Assembly (NCBI GenBank): GCA_014238065.1
Contig: JABABU010000018.1
Coordinates: 1 to 57,641, forward strand
Length of the DNA: 57,641 bases
Reading direction: 5' to 3'
Source of the DNA: Actinomycetota bacterium
GTDB lineage: Bacteria; Actinomycetota; Acidimicrobiia; Acidimicrobiales; Poriferisodalaceae
Both the position numbers and the translations under genes were made by a program. Position 1 is the first letter of the stretch. Each line of letters opens with the position of its first letter. This document shows, piece after piece, positions 5,126-44,532 of this stretch. The notes under the pieces were generated by a model. It was not told the DNA's origin. It saw only the letters and a program-made list of their open reading frames with translations, and made no database searches.

Positions 5126-6088
5126 ATGGTGAAGTGGCACAACCGAGTCTCGACCGTCTACCGTGACCTCCAGTGTCCCCCGATCGACAAGTTTGAACCC
5201 GTGACGGGCACAGAGCGTGGCAGCCGCATCGCGTACCGGACCTACGTGAGCTACATCGACAAGAGTCGCGAATACTACGCAGCCCACGGGTACGCCCACC
5301 CCTACCGGTGGGCGCAGTACTCGGATGTTCCGTTCGCCCGACTCGGGAAGCCACTCTCGGACAGCACTGTGGCATTCGTGACGACGTCGTCGATGATGCG
5401 AGTTGCGGGCTCCTCCGAGAGCGCTGGCGGGAAGAAGCGATCGTACGCGTCCGACGCGACTACGCAGCCAGAGGCGATGTACACCAACGATCTGTCGTGG
5501 GACCACGACGCCACGACCACTGACGATGTAGGTTCGTTCCTTCCCATTGCTCACCTCCACGACGCCGTTGAAGCCGGCGTCATCGGCGCGGTCTCATCTC
5601 GTTTCTACGGAGTTCCGACGGATTACAGCCAACGTCGGACCAAGGAGATCGATGCACCTGACGTGGTGCAGTGGTGCAAGGAAGACGGTGTCGACGCCGT
5701 CATCCTGGTTCCCTTGTGACCCGTGTGTCATCAGACCGTGAGTCTGACCGCACGAGCACTCGAAGCCGAAGGTATCGCCACCGTCATCGTCGGTTCCGCC
5801 AGAGACATCGTCGAAGAATGCGGCGTTCCCCGATTCGTGTTCAGTGATGTGCCGCTCGGCAACCCGTTCGGCTCCCCTGGCGATGGCGAGATTCAGCGAG
5901 CCACACTCGACCTTGCCCTGGACGTGATCGACAGGGCCTCATGGCCTCGAACCACCGTGAAGAGCGACTACGAGTGGCCCACTGAAGAGTGGAGGGCCAA
6001 CTACATGCTCGTCGACGACTCGAACAGAGCGGAACTTGCCGCTCTCGGAGATCAACGCCGCTCAAACCAAGCCGCGGCGAAGAAATGA
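5126..6088 (+). CDS. putative selenoprotein: GrdB/PrdB-like (selenoprotein B family) with in-frame UGA (Sec198)
   Basis: Two abutting frames (to 5719 and from 5723) are one gene read through the UGA at 5717-5719, giving 320 residues with Sec198 in L-U-P-V-C-H-Q-T-V, a UxxC redox motif. The upstream half has the family pattern ending DGVDAVILVPL. The downstream half (ARALEAEGIATVIVGSARDIVE, then VPRFVFSDVPLGNPFG) is the standard continuation of glycine/sarcosine/betaine/D-proline reductase B-type proteins, where this position is Cys or Sec. A 17-nt hairpin fitting a bacterial SECIS starts 11 nt after the UGA (5731-5747). The clostridial partners (GrdE/PrdA, a pyruvoyl subunit) are absent, so the substrate is unknown. 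The start is uncertain: ATG 5126 or GTG 5129, with a distant GAGGAA at 5107. It is convergent with the ferritin-like gene. Confidence 0.82.
5720..5754 (+). promoter_or_regulatory. predicted bacterial SECIS element downstream of UGA 5717
   Basis: Upper stem TCAGAC (5731-5736) pairs perfectly with GTCTGA (5742-5747) around the loop CGTGA (5737-5741). A lower stem CGTGT (5722-5726) pairs with GCACG (5750-5754), including one G-U pair, across a small internal loop. The loop begins 17 nt after the UGA and has G in its second position. Both fit the published general bacterial SECIS model (loop 16-37 nt after UGA, G in one of the first two loop positions). The same loop, closing pair and distance recur after UGA 44502 in a different gene. 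Confidence 0.78.
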
Positions 6089-6134
6089 CGGTGTCGGACA
6101 CCGTCAGCGTTCACATGTGGCTCGAGGCAGAGAG

Positions 6135-6932
6135 TTAGATGCCGACGGCTTCTCGCATCTCGGCGAGCCGTTTGGCCTCATCGGCCGCGATGTCCGCGAT
6201 TTCGTCGATCTCGTCGGTGGTGAAGCCAGCCATCTCACGGAACTGTCGGGCCAGCTTGATCGCGGATTCCGGGGTCTCGCCGCGCTGACCGCCGAGCGAG
6301 AACACGCGGTCGACGATCTTCTGGAATTCGAGCGCTGCCGCGCGGCGGTCGGGGTCGTCTTCGGTGACTTCGCGGAGCCACCTCGAGCCCATCTTCACGT
6401 GGGTGACCTCGTCGGCGAGCATCCAGTCCTCACAGAAGTACATGACCGGATCGGCCATGTCCTCGCCAAGGTCACGCATGTTCGAGAAGACGTCGATGGC
6501 AAGCCCTTCGAGCGCTCGGTTCACGCCGCACAGACGGAAGACGGGGTCGTCATGGCAGGCGGCTTCGAACAGCGTCGTGAACTCGGTGTGCTCGCCGATT
6601 TCGCAACCCATGTGTTCGTTGAGGACGACGGCGATTTCGCAGTGGCGGGCTTCGTCCCAGCATTGGCGAGCCATGTCGAGTTTCAGCTCGAAAGGAACTT
6701 CGTCGGTCCCGAAATCGAAGGCGGTGCGTCCTGCGCCTTCGAGGGCTTGGATTTCGCCGACGAAAATGCCGTGCATCTGGCGTCGTGCTCGTTCTTCGAG
6801 ATCGATCGCCTGGCTGTCCATGCGCCTGGTCTCGGTGTTGAAGTTTCTGATGTCACTGACGCGTTCAACCGCTGACCTGCGTTCGAATCTCGAGTCTCTG
6901 GCGAGTTCGCCGGCGTCGATGTTTTTTCGCAT
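6135..6932 (-). CDS. ferritin-like (DUF455-type) di-iron protein
   Basis: This 265-residue all-helical protein has the ferritin-like ligand pattern: EIQALEGAGRT, DEARHCE (E and H ligands), ALEGLAIDVF and EDWMLADEVTHVKMG. These are four helices each supplying Glu/His ligands for a two-metal site. The DUF455 family has the same ExxH arrangement, and its reaction is not established. No signal peptide is seen, so it is cytoplasmic. It is convergent with the selenoprotein-like gene (46-nt gap) and 68 nt downstream of the small membrane protein on the same strand. Family assignment is good; function is unknown. Confidence 0.75.
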   Translation of the reverse strand: MRKNIDAGELARDSRFERRSAVERVSDIRNFNTETRRMDSQAIDLEERARRQMHGIFVGEIQALEGAGRTAFDFGTDEVPFELKLDMARQCWDEARHCEIAVVLNEHMGCEIGEHTEFTTLFEAACHDDPVFRLCGVNRALEGLAIDVFSNMRDLGEDMADPVMYFCEDWMLADEVTHVKMGSRWLREVTEDDPDRRAAALEFQKIVDRVFSLGGQRGETPESAIKLARQFREMAGFTTDEIDEIADIAADEAKRLAEMREAVGI

Positions 6933-7000
6933 GTGATCCTCGATCGGTGTGTCAGCCCATTCTAGATCTGCTCCTTGCCGATCGGCCAGCGCCGCCGACT

Positions 7001-7405
7001 TCAGCTGACCATCATGACGCCGCAGAGAAACGCTCCGAAGGCAGCGACCGCACCGCCTCCGCCCGTGATGCCGCGCACCATTTTGTTGTCAGTCGCAGTG
7101 TGGACGAATGCTGCGACTCCGGAGATGGCGACGAGCAGCAGCTTGATACCGAGTACAGCGTTGTAGCCGGCTGACACCGATCCTGGGTCGACTTCGGCCA
7201 CGTTCCAGAAGCCGGTGACGACGACCAGCGCGAAGAATGGCCATGCCACTTGTCCGAACCTTCTCGCCGCCAGACGGGGAGCATCTTCGCCGATAGATCG
7301 CAGCACAGGAACCAGCGCTGCAAGCACGATTTGACCACCGAGCCAGACGGCGACACCCAGAAGGTGCAGCAGAATTCGGATCGTGTCGAGATCGAAGGAG
7401 ATCAT
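7001..7405 (-). CDS. small four-helix membrane protein (CopD/DUF2269-like)
   Basis: The protein is 134 residues with four hydrophobic segments: about 6-28 (IRILLHLLGVAVWLGGQIVL), 48-66 (VAWPFFALVVVTGFW), 83-103 and 112-133. The HLLGVAVWLGG motif in helix 1 (H, W, G) is typical of CopD-like and DUF2269-like integral membrane proteins, some of which bind haem or copper. No periplasmic domain is attached. It is divergent from guaB with 96 nt between the two starts. The role is unknown; the membrane location is clear. Confidence 0.7.
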   Translation of the reverse strand: MISFDLDTIRILLHLLGVAVWLGGQIVLAALVPVLRSIGEDAPRLAARRFGQVAWPFFALVVVTGFWNVAEVDPGSVSAGYNAVLGIKLLLVAISGVAAFVHTATDNKMVRGITGGGGAVAAFGAFLCGVMMVS

Positions 7406-7464
7406 CTCGACATCACATCACATCGCGCTACGAGAGGAGGACGTGACCTTGGGAAATCACAGGC

Positions 7465-9016
<1,552 letters not shown>

Positions 9017-9029
9017 TCTCTGAGCCAGG

Positions 9030-11546
9030 TCAGAGCCGTCGAATGGCGTCGAGCACGACCACTGGTCTGTCTGCCCCGATGCTCGCGCCGATGTCCACGT
9101 GGGCTTCGATCCGCCACTCGTGGAACTCCTCGGGGTCGACGATGACCTGGGTGATCGGCCATCGGTCTCCGTCTTCAGTGAGCACGAAGTGTTCGCCGCT
9201 GCGGGCGATGTTGTCGACGAGCATCGTGTCGAAGTCGTTCCAGTAGTCGACGAGGGCTTCGTCAAGATCGTCTGCGCTCCACCCGCCTGCACCGGACCGC
9301 AGTAGATCGCTCAGTGAGTGGTGCTGCTGCATGGCGAGCAGCTTCACCCAGCGGAACACCTCATTGCGGACCATCACTCGGAACGCCCTGCGGTTCGTGG
9401 TGATGTCGACCGGCGCCGGGGGCCTGATCTCTTCGTCCTCGACGTCGATCTGTGGCGCCGTCATCTTTTCCCACTCATCGATGAGGCTCGAGTCGGTGTG
9501 GCGGACCAATGCTCCCAGCCACTCGATGATGTCGGTGACCTGCTCGGAACGCCCGTCTGCAGGAATCGTCTGCAGCATTGCCTTGTAGGTATCGGAGAGG
9601 TACCGCAAGAGGACTCCCTCTGCGCCCTTCAGGCCGTAGAAGGTGACGTACTCCCGAAAGGTCATCGCCCGCTCGAAGAGATCGCGGGTAATCGACTTCG
9701 GCCGGACGGTTTCGCCTCCGACCCATGGATGATGTGTGGACCATGCGTTGAATGCGTTCCACAGCATCTCGCGTAGCGGTTGAGGCCACGTCACCTCGTC
9801 GAGACGCTCCATCCGCTCGTCGTACTCGACGCCGTCGGCCTTCAGCGCAGTGATGAGCTCGGTCTTCTCGTGATCGAGCTGCCTGGCGAGAACGACTCCT
9901 GGGCTTTCCAGCACCGACTCGACAATGGTCAACGTATCCAGCGGGTGATCTGGGTCGTCCTGATCGAGAAGATCCAACGCCTCGACGGCAAAGAGCGAGA
10001 GCGGCTGGTTCAGCGCGAACTCGTTCTGAAGATCGACGTTGACCCTCACCATGCGGTCGTACTCGTCGGGGCTGCGAAGCACTTCGATGATCCCGGCGTC
10101 GATGAGGGACCGGTACATGCCGATGGCCTGACGGATGTGACGACGCTGGCGATCACGTGTGTCGTGGTTGCTGACCAGGACGCTCCGAGCCGCCGCACAC
10201 CCATCGCCTGGACGGTCGAGGAGGTGGAGGAGCATCGAGTGGCTCACGTTGAACCGTGAGCCCAGTGCTTCCGGGTCCCCGTTGGCCATCTTCTCGAAGG
10301 TGTTTGCGTCCCAGTGGACGTAACCTCGCTCTGGCGGTTTCTTGCGGGGGAACTTCTTTTTCTTCTTCGGGTCTGCGAGTTCCTTGTCGCGCAGCTTGTT
10401 GTTCTCGATGACGTGGCCGGGTGCCTGGCACCACACGTAGCCGACGTCGTCGAAGCCCTTTCGTCCTGCTCTCCCGGCGATCTGTTGAAAGTCGCGGTTG
10501 CTCAGTACGCGGGTTCGCATGCCGTCCCATTTGCAGAGCTGCGTGAACAGAACGGTCCTGATCGGTACGTTCACCCCGACACCGAGTGTGTCCGTGCCGC
10601 AAATGACCTTCAGCAGGCCCTGCTGAGCGAGTTTTTCGACGAGCAGTCGATATTTCGGCAGCAGGCCGGCGTGGTGGACACCGATTCCTGCGGACACGAA
10701 CCGCTTGAGGTCGATGCCGAATACGCTGTCGAAACTGAACCCACCGATGGCTTCCTTGATTGCTGCCTTCTCGTCCTTGCTGAGGATGTCGACCGAGGTC
10801 AGCGCCTGGGCCGCGTCGGTTGCGTTCTTCTGAGTGAAGTGCACGATGTAGACCGGTGCCTGGTCCAGGCCCATGAGGTCGGCCACCGTCTCGTGGATGG
10901 GCGTTTCTCGGTACTGATACCGGAGCGGCACGGGCCGTACGGATGACGACACGAGAGCTGTCTCGCGGCCGTTCAGCGCCGTCATCTGTTCGACGAGATC
11001 GTCGGTCGCTCCGAGTGTGGCCGACATCACGATGATCTGAGCTTGTGGCAATTCGAGCAGCGGAACCTGCCACGCCCATCCCCGGTCGCGATCTCCGTAG
11101 TAGTGGAACTCGTCCATGACGACGATGTCGACCGGGGCGAGTTCGCCGTCCCTGAGGGCTGCGTTCGCGAGTATCTCAGCGGTGCAACACACGACTGGCG
11201 CGGCTGCGTTCACCGATGCATCGCCAGTGATCATCGCCACCCGATCGGTACCGAGGTCGCGACACAGCGAGAAGAACTTCTCGCTGACGAGAGCCTTGAT
11301 CGGTGCGGTGTACCAAGACCGCTGACCCCTCGCCAGCCCTGCAAAGTGTGCAGCGAGAGCGATCAGCGACTTGCCGCTTCCCGTCGGCGTGTTCACGATC
11401 ACGTTGTTGCCGGCAAGTATCTCGAGGATTGCTTCTTCCTGGGCCGAATACAGCTCGAGTCCGGCCTCGGCGACGTAGGACAGAAATCCCTCGAGGAGAG
11501 CGTCTTCGTCTCCGCTCTCTGGGAGGTGTTTCAGGAGGTCGAGCAC
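9030..11546 (-). CDS. Ski2-like DEAD/DEAH-box RNA helicase with C-terminal DUF3516 domain
   Basis: This is an 838-residue helicase. Motif I PTGSGKS is at 54-60, motif II DEFH at 145-148, motif III MSAT at 174-177 and motif VI QIAGRAGRKG at about 355-364. The HHAGLLPKYR and GVGVNVPIRTV segments are typical of the Ski2/Mtr4 group. A lysine-rich strip (392-406, DPKKKKKFPRKK) precedes a ~430-residue helical C-terminus corresponding to DUF3516, a domain found mainly in actinobacteria. RNA processing or decay is the likely job, by analogy to Ski2 proteins. It is convergent with guaB, with a gap of only 13 nt. Confidence 0.92.
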   Translation of the reverse strand: MLDLLKHLPESGDEDALLEGFLSYVAEAGLELYSAQEEAILEILAGNNVIVNTPTGSGKSLIALAAHFAGLARGQRSWYTAPIKALVSEKFFSLCRDLGTDRVAMITGDASVNAAAPVVCCTAEILANAALRDGELAPVDIVVMDEFHYYGDRDRGWAWQVPLLELPQAQIIVMSATLGATDDLVEQMTALNGRETALVSSSVRPVPLRYQYRETPIHETVADLMGLDQAPVYIVHFTQKNATDAAQALTSVDILSKDEKAAIKEAIGGFSFDSVFGIDLKRFVSAGIGVHHAGLLPKYRLLVEKLAQQGLLKVICGTDTLGVGVNVPIRTVLFTQLCKWDGMRTRVLSNRDFQQIAGRAGRKGFDDVGYVWCQAPGHVIENNKLRDKELADPKKKKKFPRKKPPERGYVHWDANTFEKMANGDPEALGSRFNVSHSMLLHLLDRPGDGCAAARSVLVSNHDTRDRQRRHIRQAIGMYRSLIDAGIIEVLRSPDEYDRMVRVNVDLQNEFALNQPLSLFAVEALDLLDQDDPDHPLDTLTIVESVLESPGVVLARQLDHEKTELITALKADGVEYDERMERLDEVTWPQPLREMLWNAFNAWSTHHPWVGGETVRPKSITRDLFERAMTFREYVTFYGLKGAEGVLLRYLSDTYKAMLQTIPADGRSEQVTDIIEWLGALVRHTDSSLIDEWEKMTAPQIDVEDEEIRPPAPVDITTNRRAFRVMVRNEVFRWVKLLAMQQHHSLSDLLRSGAGGWSADDLDEALVDYWNDFDTMLVDNIARSGEHFVLTEDGDRWPITQVIVDPEEFHEWRIEAHVDIGASIGADRPVVVLDAIRRL

Positions 11547-11588
11547 CAGCCCAGGGTACGCCCGCTGGCCGGTTGCTTGTTCGGGACC

Positions 11589-11795
11589 TCAGCGATGGCG
11601 CGAACGAGCTCGGTTGGCATCGATTCTGGCGCTGAACAGGCAGCGCTGCGCCTCGATGCGAACACCTGGTTCTGCGTTGATCTCGCGCAAGCGCTGAACC
11701 AGGTTCGATGCCTCGAGCAGCCTTCGGAACGTCTCGTCGAAATCGAGATCTATTTTCGAGTCGCGCTGGGGGGTCAGGAAAGCGGATGTGGTCAT
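11589..11795 (-). CDS. small hypothetical protein (68 aa)
   Basis: The ATG at 11795 has a well-placed GAGGAA seven bases upstream on the minus strand, which supports real translation. The peptide is charged and helical (DFDETFRRLLEASNLVQRLREINAE), ends in a basic tail (ARSRHR), and has no membrane segment or known domain. It lies 42 nt upstream of the helicase start on the same strand and may be co-transcribed with it. It is divergent from the MocR gene and shares that promoter region. No function is recognised. Confidence 0.5.
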   Translation of the reverse strand: MTTSAFLTPQRDSKIDLDFDETFRRLLEASNLVQRLREINAEPGVRIEAQRCLFSARIDANRARSRHR

Positions 11796-11832
11796 GGTGT
11801 TCCTCTAGATGGGACTTGAAGTGGACCAGACC

Positions 11833-11860
11833 ATCATGCATGATTGGACCTGATCCAATC
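11833..11860. promoter_or_regulatory. operator-like palindromes between the small ORF and the MocR gene
   Basis: Two overlapping dyads lie in the 121-nt divergent region: the perfect 12-base palindrome ATCATGCATGAT (11833-11844), and GATTGGA-CCTGA-TCCAATC (11842-11860; arms of 7, spacer of 5). A TGGACC core occurs twice (11823, 11846). GntR and MocR regulators usually bind such repeats next to their own gene, so autoregulation is the natural inference. Confidence 0.5.
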
Positions 11861-11916
11861 TAGGGCCAACTGGGTGAGTCAGCCGGTTCAGCCAATCCAT
11901 GTGAGGAGTGAGGGAA

Positions 11917-13386
11917 ATGGATGAGGAATCGATTGCGGGCGCACTTGCCGCTTTGGGAAGCGAGACGGGTCCGCTGTATCTCACGTTGGCGAGCGCCCTC
12001 GATGAACTGATCCGCGCCGGACGGATCGAGGTGGGTGCTCGACTGCCGGCGGAGCGTCGCCTTGCCGGTTCCCTGCATGTCAGCAGAGGAACAGTTGTTG
12101 CCGCCTATGACGAACTTCGACGGCGAGGTCGGCTCGTCACCCGCCAGGGAAGCGGAACCGTTGTCGCCGGTGAATCCGAGCGAAACGCCGTGCACGTCTT
12201 CGATCCTGTGCCAGAGCACGGCGGCATCTTCGACGGGTTCCTCGATCATGAACATCCTGTCGACGAGGTGGTCGATCTGCGAAGCGCGTACTGGATGGGT
12301 GTCGATGACCTCCCGGCCGATTCCTTCGTGTTGCCGACCGATGAGTGGAAAGATGCGCTGAGTGGATCCGGTTACCACCCTGCCGGGTACCCGGCCCTCC
12401 GCGAGGCGATTGCGGCCCGTTTGTCGCGGCTTGGTCTTGCCACGACGACCGATGAGGTCCTCGTGACGAATGGCGCCCAGCAAGCCCTTGCTCTCACCGT
12501 CCAGGCCAGCCTCGCACCGAACGATCTGTGCGTCGTGGAAGAGCTGACTTATCCAGGAATCATCGGACTGGTGAAGGCGCTGAGGGGGCGGCTTCACACC
12601 ACACCCATCGACAGCCATGGCGTCGATGTCGAGTTGCTCGACAGAGCGGTTCAACGCGTGAAACCCGAAGTCGTCTATCTGATGCCGAATGTTCACAACC
12701 CGACCGGAGCAATCTTTCCCGACGACCGACGGCACGCGCTGGCCGAGGTCGTAGCGACCTGGGACACGACGGTCATCGACGATCGAACACTCGTCGAACT
12801 CACCATTGATGGCGCCGTCCCGCTGCCGTTGGGCGCAGCGCCGAGCGAACCGCTGCCGAACGTGGTGTCCGTTGGATCCACGAGCAAGTCGCTGTGGGGT
12901 GGCCTACGAGTGGGATGGATCAGGGCCGACGTCGAAAGGATCGATCGGTTTGCCCGCCTCAAGGCCTTGATGGACCTGGGAACTCCCATTGCGAGTCAGA
13001 TGATGGCGACGAGGCTCCTCCCGCTCGCCGAGGGGCTGTCGAGCCATCGTCGAGTCGAGCTCAGGCAGCGAAGGGACGCGCTCGTCTCGGCACTCCGCGA
13101 TCTTCTCCCAGAGTGGAGCTTCGAGGTTCCGGACGGGGGATTGTGTCTCTGGGTCCGACTGCCCGTCGAAGATGTCAGGCGATTCATCCCCTATGCCGCC
13201 CGTCATGGGGTCGGGCTTGCGCCCGGCGACGTCAGTTCTCCTGACGGCAGGGGCAGAGATCATCTTCGGGTGCCCTTCGGCCACTGTGCCGAGGATCTGC
13301 TGGACGCGGTCGATCGCCTTGCGCTCGCGTGGGCCGACATGCAGCATCGCCCGGCCAGAACCCGCCGGCTAGGGGTGATCTTGTGA
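11917..13386 (+). CDS. MocR/PdxR-type GntR regulator with aminotransferase-like domain
   Basis: This 489-residue chimera has a GntR winged helix at residues ~15-85 (LPAERRLAGSLHVSRGTVVAAYDELRRRGRL), then a linker and a fold-type I aminotransferase domain to the end. NPTG is at about 261-264, and the PLP-binding Lys324 sits in GSTSKSLWGG. The Asp that contacts the PLP ring nitrogen lies in VIDDRTL. Such regulators sense PLP or an amino-acid adduct, and classic targets are vitamin B6 or GABA/taurine genes. None of these is adjacent here, so the target is unknown. The start is ATG 11917 with GAGGAG at 11903-11908. Operator-like palindromes lie just upstream. Confidence 0.9.
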   Translation: MDEESIAGALAALGSETGPLYLTLASALDELIRAGRIEVGARLPAERRLAGSLHVSRGTVVAAYDELRRRGRLVTRQGSGTVVAGESERNAVHVFDPVPEHGGIFDGFLDHEHPVDEVVDLRSAYWMGVDDLPADSFVLPTDEWKDALSGSGYHPAGYPALREAIAARLSRLGLATTTDEVLVTNGAQQALALTVQASLAPNDLCVVEELTYPGIIGLVKALRGRLHTTPIDSHGVDVELLDRAVQRVKPEVVYLMPNVHNPTGAIFPDDRRHALAEVVATWDTTVIDDRTLVELTIDGAVPLPLGAAPSEPLPNVVSVGSTSKSLWGGLRVGWIRADVERIDRFARLKALMDLGTPIASQMMATRLLPLAEGLSSHRRVELRQRRDALVSALRDLLPEWSFEVPDGGLCLWVRLPVEDVRRFIPYAARHGVGLAPGDVSSPDGRGRDHLRVPFGHCAEDLLDAVDRLALAWADMQHRPARTRRLGVIL

Positions 13387-13402
13387 TGGCCTCAACGTCT
13401 GA

Positions 13403-14446: not shown

Positions 14447-14526
14447 CGGAACTCCTGTGGCATTGGCGGCGCTGCGGGTTCACGGCACGAGCCGAGGGAG
14501 AATGATACCCGTTTGACCCCGATCGT

Positions 14527-34367: not shown

Positions 34368-34434
34368 GCGCCTGCGCCCGGCTTGGTCGTGTGAAAGTTC
34401 CGTGCAACGCGACTCGATGTTGTGCGAAACTGGT

Positions 34435-34616: not shown

Positions 34617-34706
34617 CGGATCCTCCTCTCCAGAGGGGGGCTCGTTGAAGTGGCTCGGGGTTCGTTCCTTTTTCGGGCGCCATCTCAGCATCTACGGTGC
34701 TTGACC

Positions 34707-36553: not shown

Positions 36554-36599
36554 GGCTGAGAGTCTGCCTGCTTGCTGTGGGCTGTGTGAAGATGGCTCG

Positions 36600-36806
36600 A
36601 TGAATGAAACCGAGCTGATGACGACGCCGTTGGACTTCGACTGCCCTCGCTGTCAAGCCGCTACGAGTGCAGCGTTTTACGGCCCGTGCGACGATTGCCG
36701 TCGCGAGCTTCGGGCAACACTCGGTACTGAGGCCCGCGACATGGAAGCTGCTGTCTACGAGCCGAAGATGAACGTGGTGCCGAACCAAGTCGCTACGAAG
36801 GAATAG
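36600..36806 (+). CDS. small zinc-ribbon protein (68 aa)
   Basis: ATG 36600 gives a 68-residue protein with one CxxC pair near residue 18 (FDCPRCQ) and another near residue 34 (GPCDDCRREL), a rubredoxin-like zinc ribbon. An acidic C-terminal part follows. The zinc-ribbon pattern is clear; no partner or activity can be named. A longer frame to 36552 exists but adds a Cys-rich leader without support. Downstream are 51 nt before the convergent SGNH gene. Confidence 0.65.
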   Translation: MNETELMTTPLDFDCPRCQAATSAAFYGPCDDCRRELRATLGTEARDMEAAVYEPKMNVVPNQVATKE

Positions 36807-36857
36807 ACCTAGCCATTCGGGTTTGGATCCTGCCGGCCGAGGGCTTGGCTCGCTGAC

Positions 36858-38279
36858 CTACATGCCGACTCTGTCGATCGCCATGTCGATGATGGTCGCG
36901 CCGGTCGGCAATGCTGGCTGGCCCCCGTAGTCGATCGCGTCGCCGAACGTCAGAACCCAACCGACAGCAGTGACCAGCCAATAACCCGATCCGGTGGTCG
37001 TCGCCCGCATGGCGACGGTGTCTGGCAGATCGCACAGTCCCAGCCCTGGTGTCGAGCCATGGAAGGCGACGCCGAAGCTGAAGACGCCCCCATCCTCTGC
37101 ATACAGCCAGTAGCCAGAGCCATCGGGATGTCTTGCCAGGTCGATCACCGGCGCGTTGAGGGCCAAACCGCCCGTACTTCCACGGAACACCGCCTCACCG
37201 AAGGTGAAGACCCCACCGTCTCCTGCGACAAGCCAGTAGCCATCGCCGGTCGATGTTGTCGACAGCGAGGACACTGGCGAATCGAGAACGAGAGCTCCCG
37301 TCGACCCATGGAAGGCGACACCGCCGAAGCTGAACACCCCTCCGTCTGAAGCGACGAGCCAGTACCCCGACCCATCGGGATGTGCTTCGAGGCGACGCAC
37401 CGGTCCTTTCAACTCGACTCCGGTCATGTCGCCTGCGAACACAGCATCGCCGTAGGCGTGAACCGAGCCGTTCTCGTCGACGATCCAGTATCCGAGTCCG
37501 GTCGGAGTCGCTTGGAACGACCCAGGCAACACCCCGACGCCGTCGGTGATGAGATCCCCGTAGTGGGTCGCACCGCCGTAGGCGTAGACGTTGCCATGGC
37601 TGTCGAGCAGCCAGTAGCCATCGGCCGAGGCTGCATCGGGGGCCGAGTCCGGCACAGACGGCGTGGTACAGGTGGCCTTCGGTCCTGTGGCGATTGCGGT
37701 GGCTACAGCGCTTTGCACCACATCGGCGAAGAGCGTGCTGCCCTGTGAGGTGAGATGGATTCCGTCAGCGACGTTGTCGTCGTCCTGGCTGACCTGGTTC
37801 CAGTCGAGCAGGCGAAGTCGTGGGTCGGAGTCTGTCTTCGAAACGAGCACGTTGTTGGCCGGTCCGTAATCGAAGGTGTTCCTGTCGTCTTCGCGCAGCG
37901 TGAGCCAGATGATCACGTCGGCGTTCGCCGCTGCGAGCACCGAGTTGACCCTGCTCGAGAACACGCCGGCGGTTCCGCCGTCGTTGTACCCGAGTTCGAC
38001 GACCAGGACGTCGACCGCTGATGCCGACGTTGCCTCGTCGACAATCTCCGGTCCTGCAGATGTGGCTCTGTTCTCTTCGGCGTCGATCGCGAGGTCGTAG
38101 TCGTTGCCAATCCTGGCCTGCAGTTTCGCTTCAGCGGCAACTGTGACCGAGTCGCCGACGATGAGCACAGAGTGATGACCTGTTGCGCCGGCCGGATTGC
38201 CGATAGCGGCCACAATGACAACGACGCCAACGGCGATGAGCAGCAGTGAGAGAGCCACGGACGTGGAGCGTCGAATCAC
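36858..38279 (-). CDS. secreted SGNH-type esterase with six GYWLV/FSFG repeats
   Basis: The 473-residue protein has a signal peptide or anchor (SVALSLLLIAVGVVVIVAAIG). An SGNH hydrolase domain follows with block I IVGDSVTV (Ser), the block III-like Asn region ELGYNDGGT and the block V Asp-His pair DGIHLTSQG. The C-terminal ~270 residues are six units of ~42 residues, consensus GxGYWLVxxDGGVFSFGxAxFxGSTG and then a Pro near position 34. The same unit occurs in the subtilisin at 51695. The repeats probably form a beta-rich, propeller-like surface module (inference). The start is uncertain: GTG 38279 is preferred, since the ATG at 38369 lies inside the divergent gene. Confidence 0.82.
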   Translation of the reverse strand: MIRRSTSVALSLLLIAVGVVVIVAAIGNPAGATGHHSVLIVGDSVTVAAEAKLQARIGNDYDLAIDAEENRATSAGPEIVDEATSASAVDVLVVELGYNDGGTAGVFSSRVNSVLAAANADVIIWLTLREDDRNTFDYGPANNVLVSKTDSDPRLRLLDWNQVSQDDDNVADGIHLTSQGSTLFADVVQSAVATAIATGPKATCTTPSVPDSAPDAASADGYWLLDSHGNVYAYGGATHYGDLITDGVGVLPGSFQATPTGLGYWIVDENGSVHAYGDAVFAGDMTGVELKGPVRRLEAHPDGSGYWLVASDGGVFSFGGVAFHGSTGALVLDSPVSSLSTTSTGDGYWLVAGDGGVFTFGEAVFRGSTGGLALNAPVIDLARHPDGSGYWLYAEDGGVFSFGVAFHGSTPGLGLCDLPDTVAMRATTTGSGYWLVTAVGWVLTFGDAIDYGGQPALPTGATIIDMAIDRVGM

Positions 38280-38344
38280 CTCAGCAAGAGTAGGACGGCA
38301 CTTCCATCGAGCGATGTCATCCACGGCTGTGAGACGATCGTCTC

Positions 38345-38938
38345 GTGGACGTGGTGATGGTTCTCGCACACCCCGACCCTTCGTCGCTGTGCGCCGAGTT
38401 GGCCGAGGACGTGAGGTCGCAGTTGTCGCGGCGCGGTCACGCAGTCCGCCTCATCGATCTCGGTCGTGAGGGTTTCGATCCGGTGATGACCGCTGACGAG
38501 CGGATTGCCTACGAAACCGAGGAGCCGATTCTCGATCCTGTGGTACGCCGTCATGCCGACCTTGTGAAGCGGGCCGATGCGATGGTCTTCGTGTACCCGA
38601 CGGTCACGGGTGGACTTCCGGCTCAGCTGAAGGGTTGGTTCGAGCGGGTGATGGTGTCGGGTGTCGCGTTCGAACTCGAAGCCAAGACGAACAAGATCAG
38701 ACCTGCGTTACGCAACATCAGGCGAATTGGAGTCATCACCACTTCTGATGCCGGCCGAGCGGCGACAGCGGTGGTGAATGACTCAGGGCGACGAACGCTT
38801 CACAGGACTCTTCGTCTCATGGCGCACCCCATGGCCAAGCGCACTTTCCTCGCGCTCTATCGCAGCGACAAACGGTCGGAGCCTGAACGGAACATCTTCA
38901 AGGACAGAGTCCACCGAGCCATGACGGGGTGGACATGA
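38345..38938 (+). CDS. NAD(P)H-dependent flavodoxin-fold oxidoreductase (copy 1)
   Basis: The 197-residue protein has a flavodoxin-like quinone/NAD(P)H oxidoreductase fold: VVMVLAHPDPSSLCAELAEDV (FMN phosphate loop), MTADERIAYETEEP, and DAMVFVYPTVTGGLPAQLKGWFERVM, the standard flavin-contacting segment of the KefF/MdaB/NQO1 group. It is translationally coupled to a second copy by an ATGA overlap. The two are ~30% alike by eye and probably form a heterodimer or act sequentially on quinones or similar acceptors. It starts at GTG 38345, divergent from the SGNH gene. Confidence 0.85.
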   Translation: MDVVMVLAHPDPSSLCAELAEDVRSQLSRRGHAVRLIDLGREGFDPVMTADERIAYETEEPILDPVVRRHADLVKRADAMVFVYPTVTGGLPAQLKGWFERVMVSGVAFELEAKTNKIRPALRNIRRIGVITTSDAGRAATAVVNDSGRRTLHRTLRLMAHPMAKRTFLALYRSDKRSEPERNIFKDRVHRAMTGWT

Positions 38939-39528
38939 GCCGCCACGCCCTCATCGTCTATGCACATCCCGTGGCCGAAAGCTATACGTCGGCCATTCGC
39001 GATCGAGTGTGCGCGGGGCTGGATGCTTCTGGGTGCGGCTTCGACGTGCTCGACCTGTACAGCGAAGAGTTCGATCCATGTATCACTGCTGCCGAGCTCG
39101 CCGGGGAGGTGCGTGCTGATCGCGTGATCGACGACCATCTCGCTCGGATGGCTGCGGCCGACACGTTGGTCTTCGTGCACCCGACCTGGTGGGGAGGTCA
39201 GCCGGCGATCGTGAAAGGGTGGCTCGACCGGGTCCTGTGCCGATCTTCGGCAACGCCGAGTCTTCGGCGCATCAGGAAGCTCGTCGTCGTTTCGCCGCAT
39301 GGGTCGGGAAGGCTCAGAAACGCAGCCCAGGGAGTACCTGGTAAACGGATCACGTTCCGGCTGCTTCGGGCCAGATGTCATCCGATGGCTCGCTCGACCT
39401 TCATCGGGTTCTACGGCAACGACACCGCTTCGCCTTCGGATCGCACCGACTTTCTCGATCGAGTCGAGGTCAAGGTGCGCGCAATCACATCAGGGCGGCG
39501 TCGCCTGCGGCTGCGTCAGAGGTCATGA
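38935..39528 (+). CDS. NAD(P)H-dependent flavodoxin-fold oxidoreductase (copy 2)
   Basis: This 197-residue paralogue of the preceding gene shows the same three landmarks: ALIVYAHPVAESYTSAIRD, ITAAELAGEVRADRVIDDHL, and DTLVFVHPTWWGGQPAIVKGWLDRVL. The shared layout PMA(K/R)xTF(L/I)xxY near the end confirms a tandem duplication. ATG 38935 overlaps the previous stop. The 3' end overlaps the convergent ATP-NAD kinase-family gene by 44 nt. The substrate is unknown; quinone or flavin reduction is inferred from the family. Confidence 0.85.
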   Translation: MSRHALIVYAHPVAESYTSAIRDRVCAGLDASGCGFDVLDLYSEEFDPCITAAELAGEVRADRVIDDHLARMAAADTLVFVHPTWWGGQPAIVKGWLDRVLCRSSATPSLRRIRKLVVVSPHGSGRLRNAAQGVPGKRITFRLLRARCHPMARSTFIGFYGNDTASPSDRTDFLDRVEVKVRAITSGRRRLRLRQRS

Positions 39529-40498
39529 ACAACTCTTCGGTCGCGGCGATGGCCATCGCCTGCTCGACGTCGATGACGCAAGGTCCGTCGCGTCGGACCG
39601 TCAAGGTCACGTCCCCTTCCCCGAGACGGGTTTCTCTGTCGCCGTCATAGGCGATAATCCCCGGCCCCGGAATCTCGACGATCTCGCCGATGGGCAGTTC
39701 CCTCGATTCCAGGACGTGAACCGTGCGATAGAGACCCGGCGCCACCGGAGCGCGCAGCGGTCGGCCTCCCGGACCGCATCGCACCAGCACGCCGTGATCT
39801 GCTTCTGAGGAGCACGGCATCGTGAGTCCCCCGATCGACGACACGCCGATCGATGCCGGTTCGGCTCGGCTCATGACGATGGTTCGGATTGTGTCGGGCT
39901 CATATGGCATGCGGTTTCCGACGAAGTCATCGACGAGATGAGCGGCGTCGATCAGGGCGAGGTCATCGCCTTTTCCGGTCGTGGCTCTGACCACTTTCAC
40001 CTGCGGCGCAACGCGTTCCCTGTCGATCTGGCCGCTGGCCACCAGTCCGGCCGCTGCCCCTATGACGGTCGCTTCAGCCATCGAAGGAAAGACGTTGTTG
40101 GTGCCGGTCGACATCGGAGCGAGGGTCACGTCGGGCCAGACCTTCGTGATGGTGCGGTTCGTGCCGTCACCGCCGAGCACGATGACGGTCTCGACGCTCA
40201 TCTCGCGCATCGCCAGCGCTGCCTTCTCAGAGTCGTGCGGCGACAAGTTGGGCTGAATGTCGAGGACCTCGTACTCGCAGTCGAGGTGGAGGTCGGCGAT
40301 GGCACCAGTCGCGATCCGGAACGGTTCAGCCATCACGACGATGCGCTCGGCGCCGCCTGTCACGGCTCCGACTACCGCCCGCGCGATTCGGTTCCTCTTG
40401 TCCTGGCTGGTCGTGACGCCGCCTCGCGCCGCCACCCTTCTGACATCTCTCCCCGACAGTGGGTTGGCGATCACTCCTACGGTCACTGGCTCCGTCAC
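39485..40498 (-). CDS. ATP-NAD kinase family protein (AcoX-like)
   Basis: This 337-residue protein has the NAD-kinase/diacylglycerol-kinase fold: VGVIANPLSGRDVRR, the GGDGTNR motif (VIVLGGDGTNRTI) and the STGTNNVFP segment. The long C-terminal part, including a CVIDVEQAMA-type ending, places it with the AcoX/PpnK-like group associated with acetoin genes rather than the housekeeping NadK. No acetoin genes are present. GTG 40498 (VTEPVTVGVIANP) is chosen because the longer frame would overlap the divergent thiD. NAD or a related cofactor as substrate is inferred. Confidence 0.82.
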   Translation of the reverse strand: MTEPVTVGVIANPLSGRDVRRVAARGGVTTSQDKRNRIARAVVGAVTGGAERIVVMAEPFRIATGAIADLHLDCEYEVLDIQPNLSPHDSEKAALAMREMSVETVIVLGGDGTNRTITKVWPDVTLAPMSTGTNNVFPSMAEATVIGAAAGLVASGQIDRERVAPQVKVVRATTGKGDDLALIDAAHLVDDFVGNRMPYEPDTIRTIVMSRAEPASIGVSSIGGLTMPCSSEADHGVLVRCGPGGRPLRAPVAPGLYRTVHVLESRELPIGEIVEIPGPGIIAYDGDRETRLGEGDVTLTVRRDGPCVIDVEQAMAIAATEELFMTSDAAAGDAALM

Positions 40499-40536
40499 AG
40501 CCGGACAACCTATCCCTGTTGGGTACAGTCCGACCC

Positions 40537-41340
40537 ATGCCGGGAGAGCGAACGTGCGCATTGTCGATCGCCGGGTTCGATCCGACGGGCACGGTCGGCA
40601 TGCCAGTCGATCTTCGCACCTTCACCCACGCCGGCGTGCATGGACTCGGTGTGGTCACGGTCGTCACGGCCCAGGACACGATCGGTATCTCCGGGGTGAA
40701 ACCGATGTCCGATGATGTCGTGGCCGACCAGCTCAGCACCCTGCTGGGAGATGTTGATCCGGCCGCTTCGAAGATGGGGATGTTGTGGAGTCCCTCGCTC
40801 GCCAGCGTGGCTGCGTCAGCGGTTGACCGACTCGGTCATCTCGTCGTCGACCCGGTGCTGGTCAGCGGGTCGGGCAGCCGGATCATCGACCAGGCGCTCG
40901 ACGAGATCTACCTGACCGAACTGTTTCCGGCTGCGGCAGTGATCACCCCGAATCGTGCTGAAGCCGGCCTCCTCGTCGGAACGGAGGTGAGTTCTACCGC
41001 TGACGCCGTTGAGGCAGCTCGGCGCCTGCTCGAGTTCGGCTCGCAGAGCGTCGTGGTCACTGCCGGCGGGCCCGGCCAAGATCAAGCTGACGTCATCGCG
41101 ACCGTCGATGAAATCGAGGTCGTCGAGACGACACGCCACGACGTGCCGAGTGTTCGAGGTAGTGGCGACACGCTTTCGGCCGCGATCACAGCAGGTCTTG
41201 CCCTCGGGTGGACGGCCTCGGTTGCGATCCGGAGGGGCATCATCGTCACGAACCGAGCCATCGAACGTGGGGTCGAGTCCATGCTCGGATCGGGCCGCCC
41301 GAGCGCGATGCAATCGCAAAACGACTGGCTTACGCAGTAG
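40537..41340 (+). CDS. thiD: phosphomethylpyrimidine kinase-like protein
   Basis: This 267-residue ribokinase-fold kinase is of the HMP/HMP-P kinase type. It opens with ALSIAGFDPTGTVGMPVDLRTF (usually GSDPSGGAG), then GLGVVTVVTAQDT, VVDPVLVSGSGSR, the anion-hole and catalytic GSGDTLSAAITAGLALG (Asp) and a C-terminal helix. It phosphorylates the pyrimidine precursor of thiamine. A thiamine transport operon under a TPP riboswitch lies 3-7 kb away. The altered first motif suggests a diverged member, perhaps a salvage kinase. The start is ATG 40537; upstream in-frame codons overlap the divergent gene. Confidence 0.82.
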   Translation: MPGERTCALSIAGFDPTGTVGMPVDLRTFTHAGVHGLGVVTVVTAQDTIGISGVKPMSDDVVADQLSTLLGDVDPAASKMGMLWSPSLASVAASAVDRLGHLVVDPVLVSGSGSRIIDQALDEIYLTELFPAAAVITPNRAEAGLLVGTEVSSTADAVEAARRLLEFGSQSVVVTAGGPGQDQADVIATVDEIEVVETTRHDVPSVRGSGDTLSAAITAGLALGWTASVAIRRGIIVTNRAIERGVESMLGSGRPSAMQSQNDWLTQ

Positions 41341-41349
41341 AACGGCGTC

Positions 41350-42516
41350 ATGGCTGAGAACGACCTCGACGCGGCGATGATCGACCGCGCTCTCATGACC
41401 ACTCGTGGCGTGCGTCGCCGTCTTGATCTCGAGCGTGAGGTCGATGACCAAGTGCTGCTCGACTGCATCGATGTCGCAGAGCAGGCACCGACCGGAGGGA
41501 ACAACGGAAGTCGCCGTTGGATCATCATTCGTGACCAGGCCACGAAGGATCGATTCCAAGAGCTGTATCTGGAGGCCGGTGCATCGTGGGTGATCGAGGC
41601 GGCCGACAGGATCGAGGGCACCGATCATCCAAATGCCTCGATGATGCAAGGAGCGAAGCGACTCGCGGAGAACATCGATCAGGTTCCTGCCATCGTCATC
41701 CTGACGGTCATCGGCGAGCACGATGGCAGTGGACGGCCGGGACTCTTCGACTCCGTCATCCAAGCCGGGTGGAGTTTCCAGGTTGCGCTTCGGGCCCGGG
41801 GTCTCGGAACCGTGTGGACATCGATGTACCTGAACAAGGCGGCCGAGGTCGCTGAACTGCTCGACATCCCTGATGGTTTGACGCAGGTCTGCATGTTTCC
41901 CGTCGCATACACGATCGGCACCGACTTCTCGCCGACGAAGAGGCGTCTCGCTGCACGCGAGATCACGTATTTCGACCGATTCGGTCGCACCATCGGTGGC
42001 CGACGAACCCAACCAGCCTCGATGGCCAACATGCACGGAGTGGCGGTGGAAGTCGACATCAAGGCACATCCCTCGAAGGTCTGGAAGTACGTGAGTGACA
42101 TCAATCTTCCCGCCCGTTTCTCTGGCGAGTTCGTTGGCGCCGACTGGGATGATCCTGGTGCCGACGTCGGCGTGGGCTCGACCTTCATCGGTCACAACGA
42201 TCACTCGGCTATCGGGCAGTGGGATGTTGACGTCACCGTGACCCACTACGAGGAGGAACAGCGGTTCGGCTGGCGAACCGGTGGCGACGAGAATCCTGGA
42301 GCGCTGTGGCGATTCGAACTCGAGTACATCCCAGGAGGGACGCGCTTGCGATACTTGTTGCAGATCGGGCCAGGACGTTCCGGCCTGAATCAGGCCATCG
42401 ACGCGATGCCAGACAAAGAGCCCCGCATCATCGCCAGGCGTCAGAGCGAACACATGGCCAACATGCGAGCAGTCATCGCTGGCATCAAGGACCTCGCCGA
42501 GGCCGGTGGTTCCTGA
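41350..42516 (+). CDS. nitroreductase fused to a SRPBCC (START-like) domain
   Basis: The 388-residue protein has two parts. Residues 1-~215 are a nitroreductase: RALMTTRGVRRRLD, AEQAPTGGNNGSRRW for FMN binding, and GWSFQVALRARGLGTVWTSMYL. From ~228 a SRPBCC module begins (VAVEVDIKAHPSKVWKYVSDINLPARFSGEF, then GVGSTFIGHNDH, and a long C-terminal helix RRQSEHMANMRAVIAGIKDLA). The second domain would bind a hydrophobic ligand and may present it to the flavin. There is no stop or frame change between the two. It follows thiD by 10 nt, and its end overlaps the convergent MFS gene by 32 nt. Confidence 0.88.
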   Translation: MAENDLDAAMIDRALMTTRGVRRRLDLEREVDDQVLLDCIDVAEQAPTGGNNGSRRWIIIRDQATKDRFQELYLEAGASWVIEAADRIEGTDHPNASMMQGAKRLAENIDQVPAIVILTVIGEHDGSGRPGLFDSVIQAGWSFQVALRARGLGTVWTSMYLNKAAEVAELLDIPDGLTQVCMFPVAYTIGTDFSPTKRRLAAREITYFDRFGRTIGGRRTQPASMANMHGVAVEVDIKAHPSKVWKYVSDINLPARFSGEFVGADWDDPGADVGVGSTFIGHNDHSAIGQWDVDVTVTHYEEEQRFGWRTGGDENPGALWRFELEYIPGGTRLRYLLQIGPGRSGLNQAIDAMPDKEPRIIARRQSEHMANMRAVIAGIKDLAEAGGS

Positions 42517-43873
42517 ACAGGGTCAGGGCGCAGGCTGAGGCCAGGAAGTACATGGTGACGACGAGGATCCAGCCGTTGCGGTACTCACTGACACTGATGT
42601 CACCGGTCCCGAGAATGGTGACCATGACGGCGATGCCGAAGGCGTAGGCGATCTGCTGGAGGGTTCTGCTGGTGGCGTTGGCCAGCGCGAACCGGTCGTG
42701 GCCGATCTCGCTCATCGCCGCGCCGGTGATGTTGGCCAACGAAAGTCCGAGCCCGAATCCGAGCAGCAGCGTTGGCACCAGATAACGCGACAGGTAGTCG
42801 GGTTCGGCTTGAGCGGTGATGGCCAAGAACAGGTAGCTGACGCCCATCGATGCCGTGCCGATGACCACCAGAATCTTGTAGCCGGTTCGTTCAGCAAGTC
42901 GTCCCGAGTACATGCCGACGAACGTGGCGACGATTGGACCTGGCGAGAGCGCGAACCCAGTCTTCAGCACGCTGTATCCCCACAACTCCTGGAGGTACAG
43001 CGTTGTCGTCAGGAACCCTGACAGGAAAGCGACACCGAAGAAGATCACGACGATCACAGCCGGCCAGTAGGAACGGACTTTGAACAGCGTCAAGTCGATT
43101 GCGGGCCGGGGGTGCTTCCTCGCCCGCTGGATCGAGATGGGAAGACAAGCGACGCCGATTGCGACCAGCCCGAGCGTCCTCTCATCGAGGAAGCCCCAGT
43201 CGCCGGCCTGGACCATGGCGAACATGACCAGCGCCACGCCTGCTGTCGCTATGGGAACGCCAAAGGGGTCGAGACCGCTGCGCACGTTTTCGGCCTTCGA
43301 TTCCGGCACCCGGACCAGCGTCATGATGATGGCGACGAGTCCGAGGGGAATGTTGATCCAGAAGATGGCGCGCCAGCTCGACAGGTCGATCAGTAGTGCT
43401 CCGACTGTCGGTCCGGTTGCAGCTCCTGCCGAGGCCATCGAGCCCCAGATGCCGATTGCTGTCGCCCGCCGTTGTGTCGGGAACAGCGGCAGGATCAACG
43501 CCAGCGACGATGGCATCACGCCGGCGGTGCCGATGCCCTGGACGACTCGACCGACAATCAACACCTCGAACGAATCGGCGATGCCAGCGATGGCCGAGCC
43601 GACCACGAACAGACCGAGACACACGGTGAAGACGAGGCGGCGTCCTCTGAGGTCGGCGAGGTGTCCGGCGACGAGTAGCAGTGACGCGGTGGTGATCGTG
43701 TACGCCGAGATCATCCACGACAAGGTCGATCGACTGGTTCCGAGATCTGCGCCGACGGAAGGGAACGCGACGTTCACAGCTGAAGCGTCGACGACGCTCA
43801 TGTACAGCGACAGCGACACGATGGCCAACGCGATCCATGCGTTTCGCTCGACCTTGACCCGCTCGTCACTCAT
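42485..43873 (-). CDS. MFS transporter, DHA2 (14-TM drug:H+ antiporter) family
   Basis: The 462-residue membrane protein starts with helix 1 (WIALAIVSLSLYMSVVDASAVNVAFPSVGADLG), typical of DHA2/QacA-EmrB proteins. It continues with WMISAYTITTASLLLVAGHLADLRGRR (motif A) and VVQGIGTAGVMPSSLALILPLFPTQRRATAIGIWGSMASAGAATGPTVGALL (motif C). About 13-14 hydrophobic segments can be counted. It probably exports drugs or hydrophobic metabolites with proton influx. No regulator is adjacent. Confidence 0.9.
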   Translation of the reverse strand: MSDERVKVERNAWIALAIVSLSLYMSVVDASAVNVAFPSVGADLGTSRSTLSWMISAYTITTASLLLVAGHLADLRGRRLVFTVCLGLFVVGSAIAGIADSFEVLIVGRVVQGIGTAGVMPSSLALILPLFPTQRRATAIGIWGSMASAGAATGPTVGALLIDLSSWRAIFWINIPLGLVAIIMTLVRVPESKAENVRSGLDPFGVPIATAGVALVMFAMVQAGDWGFLDERTLGLVAIGVACLPISIQRARKHPRPAIDLTLFKVRSYWPAVIVVIFFGVAFLSGFLTTTLYLQELWGYSVLKTGFALSPGPIVATFVGMYSGRLAERTGYKILVVIGTASMGVSYLFLAITAQAEPDYLSRYLVPTLLLGFGLGLSLANITGAAMSEIGHDRFALANATSRTLQQIAYAFGIAVMVTILGTGDISVSEYRNGWILVVTMYFLASACALTLFRNHRPRRGP

Positions 43874-44001
43874 CGCAGGACGCTACCCGTCCGATAGCGG
43901 TCTCTGACGGCCGTTGCTGAAGCCCTGATGTTGCCGCCTCGGAACGCATCAGACCAGCCGACAGGTCCACCGCTTCGAAGCGATGCTGACCACGGAGTTT
44001 G

Positions 44002-44262
44002 TCAGCGGACCTGATGACGAACGACATCGAAGACGCTCATTCGCACGTACCGATAGCTTTCCCGGGGAAGGTAGTTGAACGGCTCCGGTGGGAGAGGTCC
44101 ATTGGCTTGCCTCCCCCTTGGCCGCTCGCATCGTTGCCGTTTTCGGGCGTCGTTGGGCCCGTGAAATCCGACCGACTGGCCGCGGTCGACCTCGAGGTGG
44201 GATCCGTCGAGTGCTCGAATGTTCCCGAAGGCCTCCGATGTCGCACTCACCGGAAGTGTCAT
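44002..44262 (-). pseudogene. decayed ABC-transporter ATPase N-terminal fragment
   Basis: The 86-codon frame includes AFGNIRALDGSHLEVDRGQSVGFHGPNDARKRQ. This matches the opening of ABC-type ATPases (F-G-x-x-x-ALDGVxLEV-x-x-G-x-x-x-GF-x-GPNGAGK-T), with the Walker A reduced to GPNDARK. After that the homology disappears (arginine- and proline-rich text) and no signature or Walker B motif follows. I read this as the remnant of a deleted drug-type ABC gene. It lies 9 nt downstream of the SelW-like gene on the same strand. The neighbouring 43874-44001 contains no convincing gene. Confidence 0.5.
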
Positions 44263-44271
44263 GTCGTCAGG

Positions 44272-44532
44272 TCAGGTTCCGTACTCGCGAATGTCAGGTC
44301 CTACGATTTCGCGCACGAGACCGAGAATTTCCCCCGGCATGGCGTGTCGCCCGGTCTCGTGCTTCGAGTAGACCAGATCGCCGTTGATCTCGACGTCGAA
44401 GATGCCACTCGGCCCTGGCTTGATGACGACTTCGTCGACAACGTGCTGATAGGTGCTCAGCACTTCGGTGGCCGCACTCACGGCGCGGGCTGAATAGTCT
44501 CAAGGCAAGCAGTATGTGATGGAGACCTTCAT
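44272..44532 (-). CDS. putative selenoprotein: SelW/Rdx-family protein with CxxU motif (Sec11)
   Basis: Reading the minus strand from ATG 44532 gives MKVSITYC-LP-U-DYSARAV, in which UGA 44502-44500 is residue 11. C8-L-P-U11 is the CxxU redox motif of SelW/SelT/SelH (Rdx) proteins. The rest (AATEVLSTYQHVVDEVVIKPGPSGIFDVEINGDLVYSKHETGRHAMPGEI) is the standard Rdx continuation, including the PGxxGxFxVxxNG strand and the G-R-x-P helix. The total of 86 residues is the normal length, whereas the frame after the UGA alone would lack the active site. A SECIS-like hairpin follows. ATG 44553 is in frame seven codons earlier. It lies 64 nt downstream of the thiamine ABC ATPase gene. A thioredoxin-like redox role is inferred. 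Confidence 0.85.
44472..44499 (-). promoter_or_regulatory. predicted bacterial SECIS element downstream of UGA 44502
   Basis: On the minus strand CCGCGC (44488-44483) pairs with GTGCGG (44477-44472; one G-U) around the loop CGTGA (44482-44478). The loop starts 17 nt after the UGA and has G at its second position. Loop sequence, C-G closing pair, stem length (6 bp) and distance are identical to the hairpin after UGA 5717, although the stem bases and the genes are unrelated. This is what a shared SelB binding site would look like. Confidence 0.78.

What the first reader, a model, noticed from the sequence alone, without database searches (positions are those of the whole stretch)
5720..44499. 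Two UGA codons share the same SECIS-like hairpin: 17 nt spacing, 6-bp stem, C-CGUGA-G loop
After UGA 5717 the hairpin is TCAGAC-CGTGA-GTCTGA. After UGA 44502, on the other strand, it is CCGCGC-CGTGA-GTGCGG. The genes and stem bases are unrelated, yet loop, closing pair, stem length and distance from UGA coincide exactly. Coincidence is very unlikely, and the shared loop suggests the recognition signature of this lineage's SelB. It may be a clade-specific SECIS sub-type useful for finding more selenoproteins.
Basis: partly seen in the sequence, partly recalled or inferred. Interest (0 to 1): 0.93.

Follow-up and report, generated by a model that had tools for sequence, protein, structure and literature searches.

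The report
Two selenocysteine hairpins sharing one grammar
Two genes in this bacterium each carry a small mRNA hairpin just after an in-frame UGA codon, and comparison with about 200 related genes shows that the hairpin is conserved as RNA, so it likely tells the ribosome to insert selenocysteine there; it is a known kind of signal and probably not one private to this lineage.

Summary
Both UGAs (5717 +, 44502 -) interrupt real genes: a PrdB/GrdB-superfamily protein (UxxC) and a SelW-like Rdx protein (CxxU). Each is followed by 11 nt, a 6-bp stem and CGUGA; no other such TGA pair in the window shares a loop. The genome has SelA, SelB and tRNA-Sec.

In 174 UGA-bearing homologue sites of one class, CGUGA is only the commonest version of a wider rule, C-[N1-G-U-N2-N]-G, in which N1 and N2 are complementary (C:G, G:C, A:U) and covary at third codon positions: 117 of 117 distinct rows, against about 30% in control codon pairs. 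On a GrdB tree the pair changed at least eight times. None of 12 homologues without UGA fits the rule. A held-out gene, formate dehydrogenase, fits in 30 of 30 loci.

Not supported: a fixed 17-nt distance (17, 18, 21 and 23 occur), CGUGA as the SelB signature, and clade specificity (one clostridial FdhA has C-GGUCU-G; the SelB tail resembles solved SelB RNA-binding domains). Models trained on one family did not detect the other's site. A known kind of element, sharply defined here.

The parts
5081..6088 (+). PrdB/GrdB-superfamily selenoprotein frame (first start TTG 5081, next ATG 5126; stop TGA 6086-6088), Sec at residue 213 counted from 5081, motif U-P-V-C
5717..5719 (+). in-frame UGA, predicted Sec codon
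   Evidence: aligned with Cys in L054 and L237
5731..5747 (+). SECIS hairpin 1: TCAGAC-CGTGA-GTCTGA, 11 nt after the UGA
44272..44553 (-). SelW-like Rdx selenoprotein gene (93 aa), Sec at residue 18, motif C-L-P-U
44500..44502 (-). in-frame UGA, predicted Sec codon
   Evidence: Cys in L125 and in five outside homologues L278-L282
44472..44488 (-). SECIS hairpin 2: CCGCGC-CGTGA-GTGCGG, 11 nt after the UGA

Best explanation
Both hairpins are bacterial SECIS elements, predicted to be held by the winged-helix tail of SelB so that Sec-tRNA-Sec would be delivered to the UGA just upstream. What the sequences show: a stem of about 4-6 bp ends in a C-G pair and a loop N1-G-U-N2-N, in which N1 and N2 are complementary and covary, so they would form one more pair that holds G-U out as a two-base tip with a free base 3' of it. 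Inferred: SelB reads the G-U tip and the backbone shape, and CGUGA is the version that suits the codons of these two proteins (x-Val-Ser written NNC GTG AGY). The two genes look alike because both were fitted to the same SelB in a codon frame that allows the same solution (codon +6 Ala/Thr/Ser, +7 Val, +8 Ser/Gly/Arg/Cys); common descent of the genes is not needed.
For: UGA at the aligned codon in 174 of 178 fetched homologue loci (178 of 233 places found). N1:N2 pair in 117 of 117 distinct rows with 38 changed on both sides against 284 of 957 and 181 of 554 control codon pairs; each family alone: 57 of 57 and 54 of 54; at least 8 changes on a GrdB tree built without the hairpin. Ser after the loop AGY in 53 of 53, elsewhere 178 of 740. 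Rule with an uninterrupted stem of 4 or more in 167 of 174, in 0 of 12 homologues without UGA. With stem of 5 or more: 164 of 174, against 23 of 1769 TGA triplets of the window, the two sites included. FdhA held out: 30 of 30 loci. tRNA-Sec, SelB and SelA present. R1 over 247 genomes: 120 of 131 with GrdB/SelW proteins, 1 of 116 without.
Against: No experiment shows Sec insertion or SelB binding. SelD was not searched for (a crude motif scan of 40 kb at the sel locus found none). L127, a canonical GrdB, has a GG loop and 6 of 174 have interrupted stems. Models trained on one family do not detect the other, and R1 misses FdhA of the own genome. E. coli fdnG and fdoG do not fit the two-base register. 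The sites are related, so counts are not independent.
Confidence: 0.93

Rival explanations
1. The likeness comes from the proteins alone: both happen to need x-Val-Ser seven to eight codons after Sec, and the hairpin is a by-product.
For: In both genes GTG-A is Val plus the first base of Ser, and the closing C and G are second codon bases, so amino acids do limit the choice.
Against: Third bases covary although the amino acids allow other codons (ACC-GTG, ACG-GTC, TCA-GTT); Ser is AGY in 53 of 53 against 178 of 740 elsewhere. In FdhA loop and closing bases fall on Gly GGT (30 of 30, elsewhere 133 of 958) and Leu CTG (30 of 30, elsewhere 259 of 749). Homologues without UGA do not keep the rule (0 of 12).
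Confidence: 0.03
2. A clade-specific SECIS sub-type read by a specialised SelB.
For: In this class 149 of 174 GrdB/SelW sites have exactly the same geometry and all 117 aligned rows close with C-G; E. coli fdhF closes with A-U and fdnG does not fit.
Against: A clostridial FdhA (L275) has C-GGUCU-G at the same 18 nt as the FdhA of this class; the SelB tail best matches 1WSU. Only four Sec sites outside the class could be read (L275 and three of E. coli), so the comparison is thin.
Confidence: 0.06
3. The UGAs are real stops or errors in decaying genes.
For: UGA is also the true stop at the end of both genes.
Against: The aligned codon is TGA in 174 of 178 fetched loci, with reading frames open on both sides, and the Sec machinery is present.
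Confidence: 0.01

Closest known systems
Bacterial SECIS consensus (bSECISearch model of Zhang and Gladyshev, as quoted in PMC13188914; passages read)
   Different: The pattern quoted there puts three bases between the pairing loop bases N1 and N2; here the pair that covaries encloses two (100% against 12%). Closing C-G and the few allowed distances are stricter than the model
E. coli fdhF SECIS (L228; minimal element ggttgcaggtctgcacc in a legend of PMC3834832)
   Same: G-GU-C: the GU tip in a G:C pair, loop 18 nt from UGA
   Different: Closed by A-U with no free 3' base, and the stem carries an unpaired U on the 5' side; fdnG and fdoG have A-GUC-U instead
FdhA SECIS of Acetoanaerobium noterae (Clostridia, L275)
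   Same: GTGTCC-GGTCT-GGGCAC at 18 nt: same loop, closing pair and distance as FdhA of this class
   Different: Stem bases differ
SelW-like and proline reductase PrdB selenoproteins (Sargasso Sea selenoproteome, PMC1088965; passages read)
   Same: Same two families with CXXU and UXXC motifs and predicted bacterial SECIS elements
   Different: The protein here is under the PrdB equivalog cut-off (97.2 against 300 bits); its reaction is unknown

Membership tests
bacterial SECIS element | apical loop of 3-9 nt on a stem of 4-16 bp | tested here: met
   5-nt loop, 6 bp at both sites
bacterial SECIS element | G in one of the first two loop positions | tested here: met
   CGUGA at both sites; GT at that place in 171 of 174 homologue sites
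bacterial SECIS element | 16-37 nt between UGA and loop | tested here: met
   17 nt at both; 17, 18, 21 or 23 in relatives
bacterial SECIS element | minimum free energy of -7.5 kcal/mol or lower | tested here: met
   -15.6 and -10.4 for 44-nt pieces, which hold more than the hairpin
bacterial SECIS element | loop pair N1:N2 with three bases between (quoted as mostly present) | tested here: not met
   12% pair in that register, 100% with two bases between; not an obligatory feature of the model
bacterial SECIS element | UGA aligned with Cys in homologues | tested here: met
   L054 and L237 for the PrdB-like gene, L125 and L278-L282 for SelW
bacterial SECIS element | Sec machinery in the genome | tested here: met
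   tRNA-Sec 67.2 bits, SelB 271.8, SelA 381.8, each over its cut-off; SelD not searched for
bacterial SECIS element | directs Sec insertion and binds SelB | not testable with these tools
   needs an experiment
SelW-like / Rdx family (PF10262) | profile score over the cut-off and CxxU motif | tested here: met
   66 bits against 22.6; C-L-P-U
D-proline reductase PrdB (TIGR04483) | score over the equivalog cut-off of 300 bits | tested here: not met
   97.2 bits: superfamily member, not filed as PrdB
Glycine reductase selenoprotein B (PF07355, TIGR01917) | score over the cut-off | tested here: not met
   21.7 against 22 and 28.8 against 602.2
   one clostridial FdhA shares C-GGUCU-G; E. coli sites differ; only four outside Sec sites were read

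The most novel reading that the evidence does not exclude
Bacterial SECIS elements, said to bear little resemblance to each other, obey one compact grammar: a C-G pair, then N1-G-U-N2 with N1:N2 complementary, then one or two free bases, at a few distances from UGA set by the codon frame. SelB reads only the extruded G-U and the shape, so almost any protein can evolve a SECIS by choosing synonymous codons.
Probability: 0.35. Interest if true: 0.62.

Novelty: new member of a known kind. Interest (0 to 1): 0.47.

Why it matters
It explains two genes that standard gene finding would cut at UGA, and five more UGA sites of the same genome (four GrdB-like, one FdhA). It also gives a testable rule for how SelB can recognise very different hairpins: the constant part is G-U held by a covarying pair, not a loop sequence. 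Silent third positions carry the signal, which is clean evidence for RNA-level selection inside coding sequence and could sharpen selenoprotein annotation, for which the published SECIS model is loose.

Tried and rejected
Rfam gave nothing. The pattern TGA-N17-CGTGA has 168 matches in the genome (50 for the reversed pattern); 100 were listed, and of the 30 fetched as loci none had 5 or more stem pairs: too loose alone. Single-family models: R2 (57 GrdB rows, own genome left out) gives the SelW site 7.9 bits, E 2.4; R3 (54 SelW rows, own left out) does not list the GrdB site; in the whole genome R3's only other hit (15.8 bits, E 5.4) is the GrdB-like hairpin on C52. So much of R1's power comes from the codons of each family, and R1 misses the own FdhA. 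Of 8 outside records fetched one has UGA, seven have Cys.

Limits: rows are related; shuffles do not correct for that, the tree does in part. The 117-row alignment holds 114 distinct rows that passed a filter (GT in the loop, inner four pairs formed) plus three added by hand with imperfect stems (L085, L091, L180), so its stem percentages are conditional; N1:N2 was never filtered. 55 of the 233 places, and 71 of the 101 TGA-bearing FdhA rows listed, were not fetched. The 1-of-116 figure takes the 247 genomes to be handles G000-G246. A wrong-frame translation was made and not used.
Full report
What is there. UGA 5717 lies inside a PrdB/GrdB-superfamily frame (5081-6088, +; VPL-U-PVCHQTVSL; families) and UGA 44502 inside a SelW-like Rdx frame (44553-44272, -; YCLP-U-DYSARAVSA). 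Each is followed by 11 nt, a 6-bp stem and the loop CGTGA. Of 1770 TGA triplets in the window, 12 have six pairs at that place around five bases, and only these two share a loop; none of 60 simulated windows had two CGTGA cases.

Machinery. The same genome (G000, 3.94 Mb, 94.65% complete, unnamed) has tRNA-Sec (C10:8013-8104, 67.2 bits, cut-off 47), SelB (C10, 271.8 bits, cut-off 242.25; it ends in a SelB winged-helix domain PF09107) and SelA just upstream of SelB (381.8 bits, cut-off 267.9). SelA is over its cut-off in 200 of 296 genomes of the class. SelD was not searched for; a crude motif scan of 40 kb around selA-selB showed none.

Relatives. Searches of 296 genomes of the class found 117 GrdB-like places in 87 genomes and 116 SelW-like places in 115 genomes (place counts are mine from the tables). 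I fetched 107 and 71 of them. The aligned codon is TGA in 174 of 178, Cys in two (L054, L125) and Ala in two (L123, L124).

The rule. In 149 of the 174 the hairpin sits exactly as in the window (filter: GT in the loop and the inner four pairs). The loop is N1-G-U-N2-N. N1:N2 is C:G in 101, G:C in 30, A:U in 17 and G:U in 1; the last base is A, G, C or U; CGTGA is the commonest loop, 54 of 149. Of the other 25, seven fit the rule with the loop 21 nt from UGA, eleven GrdB of the U-P-D-C-C type carry C-GU-G with two free bases 23 nt from UGA, six keep a CGTG loop at 17 nt on an interrupted stem, and L127, a canonical GrdB, has a GG loop. A scan for the rule with an uninterrupted stem of four or more finds it in 167 of 174; it takes the longest stem, so three sites that fit two registers are counted away from 17 nt (17 nt in 146, 21 in 8, 23 in 13). 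Without any stem filter 171 of 174 have GT at the 17-nt place and 168 of 171 are pairable; eleven of these are the U-P-D-C-C sites, where that register is a coincidence, and the three unpaired ones (L188, L204, L210) are shifted SelW sites.

Is it RNA-level? N1 is the third base of codon +6 and N2 the third base of the Val codon at +7. ACC-GTG, ACG-GTC and TCA-GTT are all used. In 117 distinct rows N1:N2 pair in 117, 38 of them changed on both sides relative to the commonest pair; the neighbouring register pairs in 12%. Elsewhere in the same stretches NNx-GTy codons are complementary in 284 of 957 (GrdB loci) and 181 of 554 (SelW loci, partly outside the gene). Ser at +8 is AGY in 53 of 53, elsewhere 178 of 740. 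Each family shows it alone: GrdB 57 of 57 with 25 double changes, SelW 54 of 54 with 11. On a tree of 87 GrdB proteins built without the hairpin residues the pair type changed at least eight times, and no unpaired form was among the 87. Five homologues without UGA (three Cys, two Ala; L237 is from a Stellaceae MAG) and seven Cys forms from named plasmid-collection records do not fit the rule at any scanned distance, 0 of 12, although L054 still has 5 of 6 stem pairs and L237 has 4.

Held-out family. The own genome has a formate dehydrogenase with one TGA (C12:10310). Of the TGAs with open flanks in that locus only the Sec codon (NRT-U-HAP) satisfies the rule: GTCGTC-GGTCT-GGCGAC, loop 18 nt away. 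The 30 best-scoring loci all have C-GGUCU-G at 18 nt, 27 of them distinct; 71 further TGA-bearing rows listed were not fetched. The Gly is GGT in 30 of 30 (elsewhere 133 of 958) and the Leu CTG in 30 of 30 (elsewhere 259 of 749).

Genome-wide specificity. Model R1 (117 rows, own sites included) finds in the own genome six sites below E 1e-4, five GrdB-like UGAs and the SelW UGA; the next hit has E 7.9. Over 247 genomes it hits 120 of 131 that have GrdB or SelW proteins and 1 of 116 that have neither (G196, E 0.008). Against this: models trained on one family do not find the other in the window (R2 gives the SelW site 7.9 bits, E 2.4; R3 does not list the GrdB site), and R1 misses the own FdhA with its 18-nt distance. 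The hairpin alone carries too little information for a blind genome scan.

What it works like, and what is not new. [quoted passage not shown] passages of PMC13188914), except that the pair register quoted there (three bases between N1 and N2) is not the one seen here (two bases). E. coli fdhF has G-GU-C in the two-base form closed by A-U; fdnG, and fdoG with the same bases, do not fit it. A clostridial FdhA has the same C-GGUCU-G form. The SelB tail aligns best with solved SelB chains 1WSU (E 1.4e-7) and 2PJP (E 2.6e-4), all sharing an RK...L..LD/..D...TRR.G stretch; that 1WSU is the Moorella SelB-SECIS complex and 2PJP the E. coli one is recalled. The signature is therefore best read as general bacterial, with CGUGA the solution that these two proteins share, though only four Sec sites outside the class could be read. 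SelW-like and PrdB selenoproteins with predicted SECIS elements are in print (passages of PMC1088965). The literature searches cover open-licence papers only and I read passages of six papers; none of those passages states the two-base pair rule, which is no proof that it is unpublished.

Mechanism. Shown: RNA-level conservation, the machinery genes, the UGA/Cys alignment. Inferred: SelB binds the G-U tip; the C-G closing pair and N1:N2 set its geometry; Sec enters at both UGAs; the free 3' base and the alternative distances let the hairpin fit different codon frames.

Noticed in passing
L103 (G252, SelW homologue): Reads ITY-U-VP-U-DYS: two in-frame TGAs 9 nt apart, a possible UxxU SelW served by one hairpin.
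   Followed up: no
L123 and L124 (G158, G194): GrdB-like paralogues with Ala where Sec should be; loop CGTCT with N1:N2 broken and 3 of 6 stem pairs.
   Followed up: partly
L115 (G277:C49): GrdB-like protein with U-P-L-D instead of U-x-x-C, on a long branch, hairpin kept.
   Followed up: no
window 6087-6105: Perfect 9-bp inverted repeat with a 1-nt centre overlapping the stop codon of the PrdB-like gene (read).
   Followed up: no
G000 contigs C22, C23, C52, C16 and C12: Four further GrdB-like genes and one formate dehydrogenase with in-frame UGA in the same genome.
   Followed up: yes
family f30, genus g66 (about 0.6-1.1 Mb genomes; L190, L192, L196, L197, L201): Very small genomes that keep a SelW-like UGA gene, mostly with SelA; the five fetched use the A:U loop AGUUA.
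   Followed up: no
G196, R1 hit at E 0.008: The only R1 match in a genome without a GrdB or SelW protein hit; chance or another selenoprotein.
   Followed up: no
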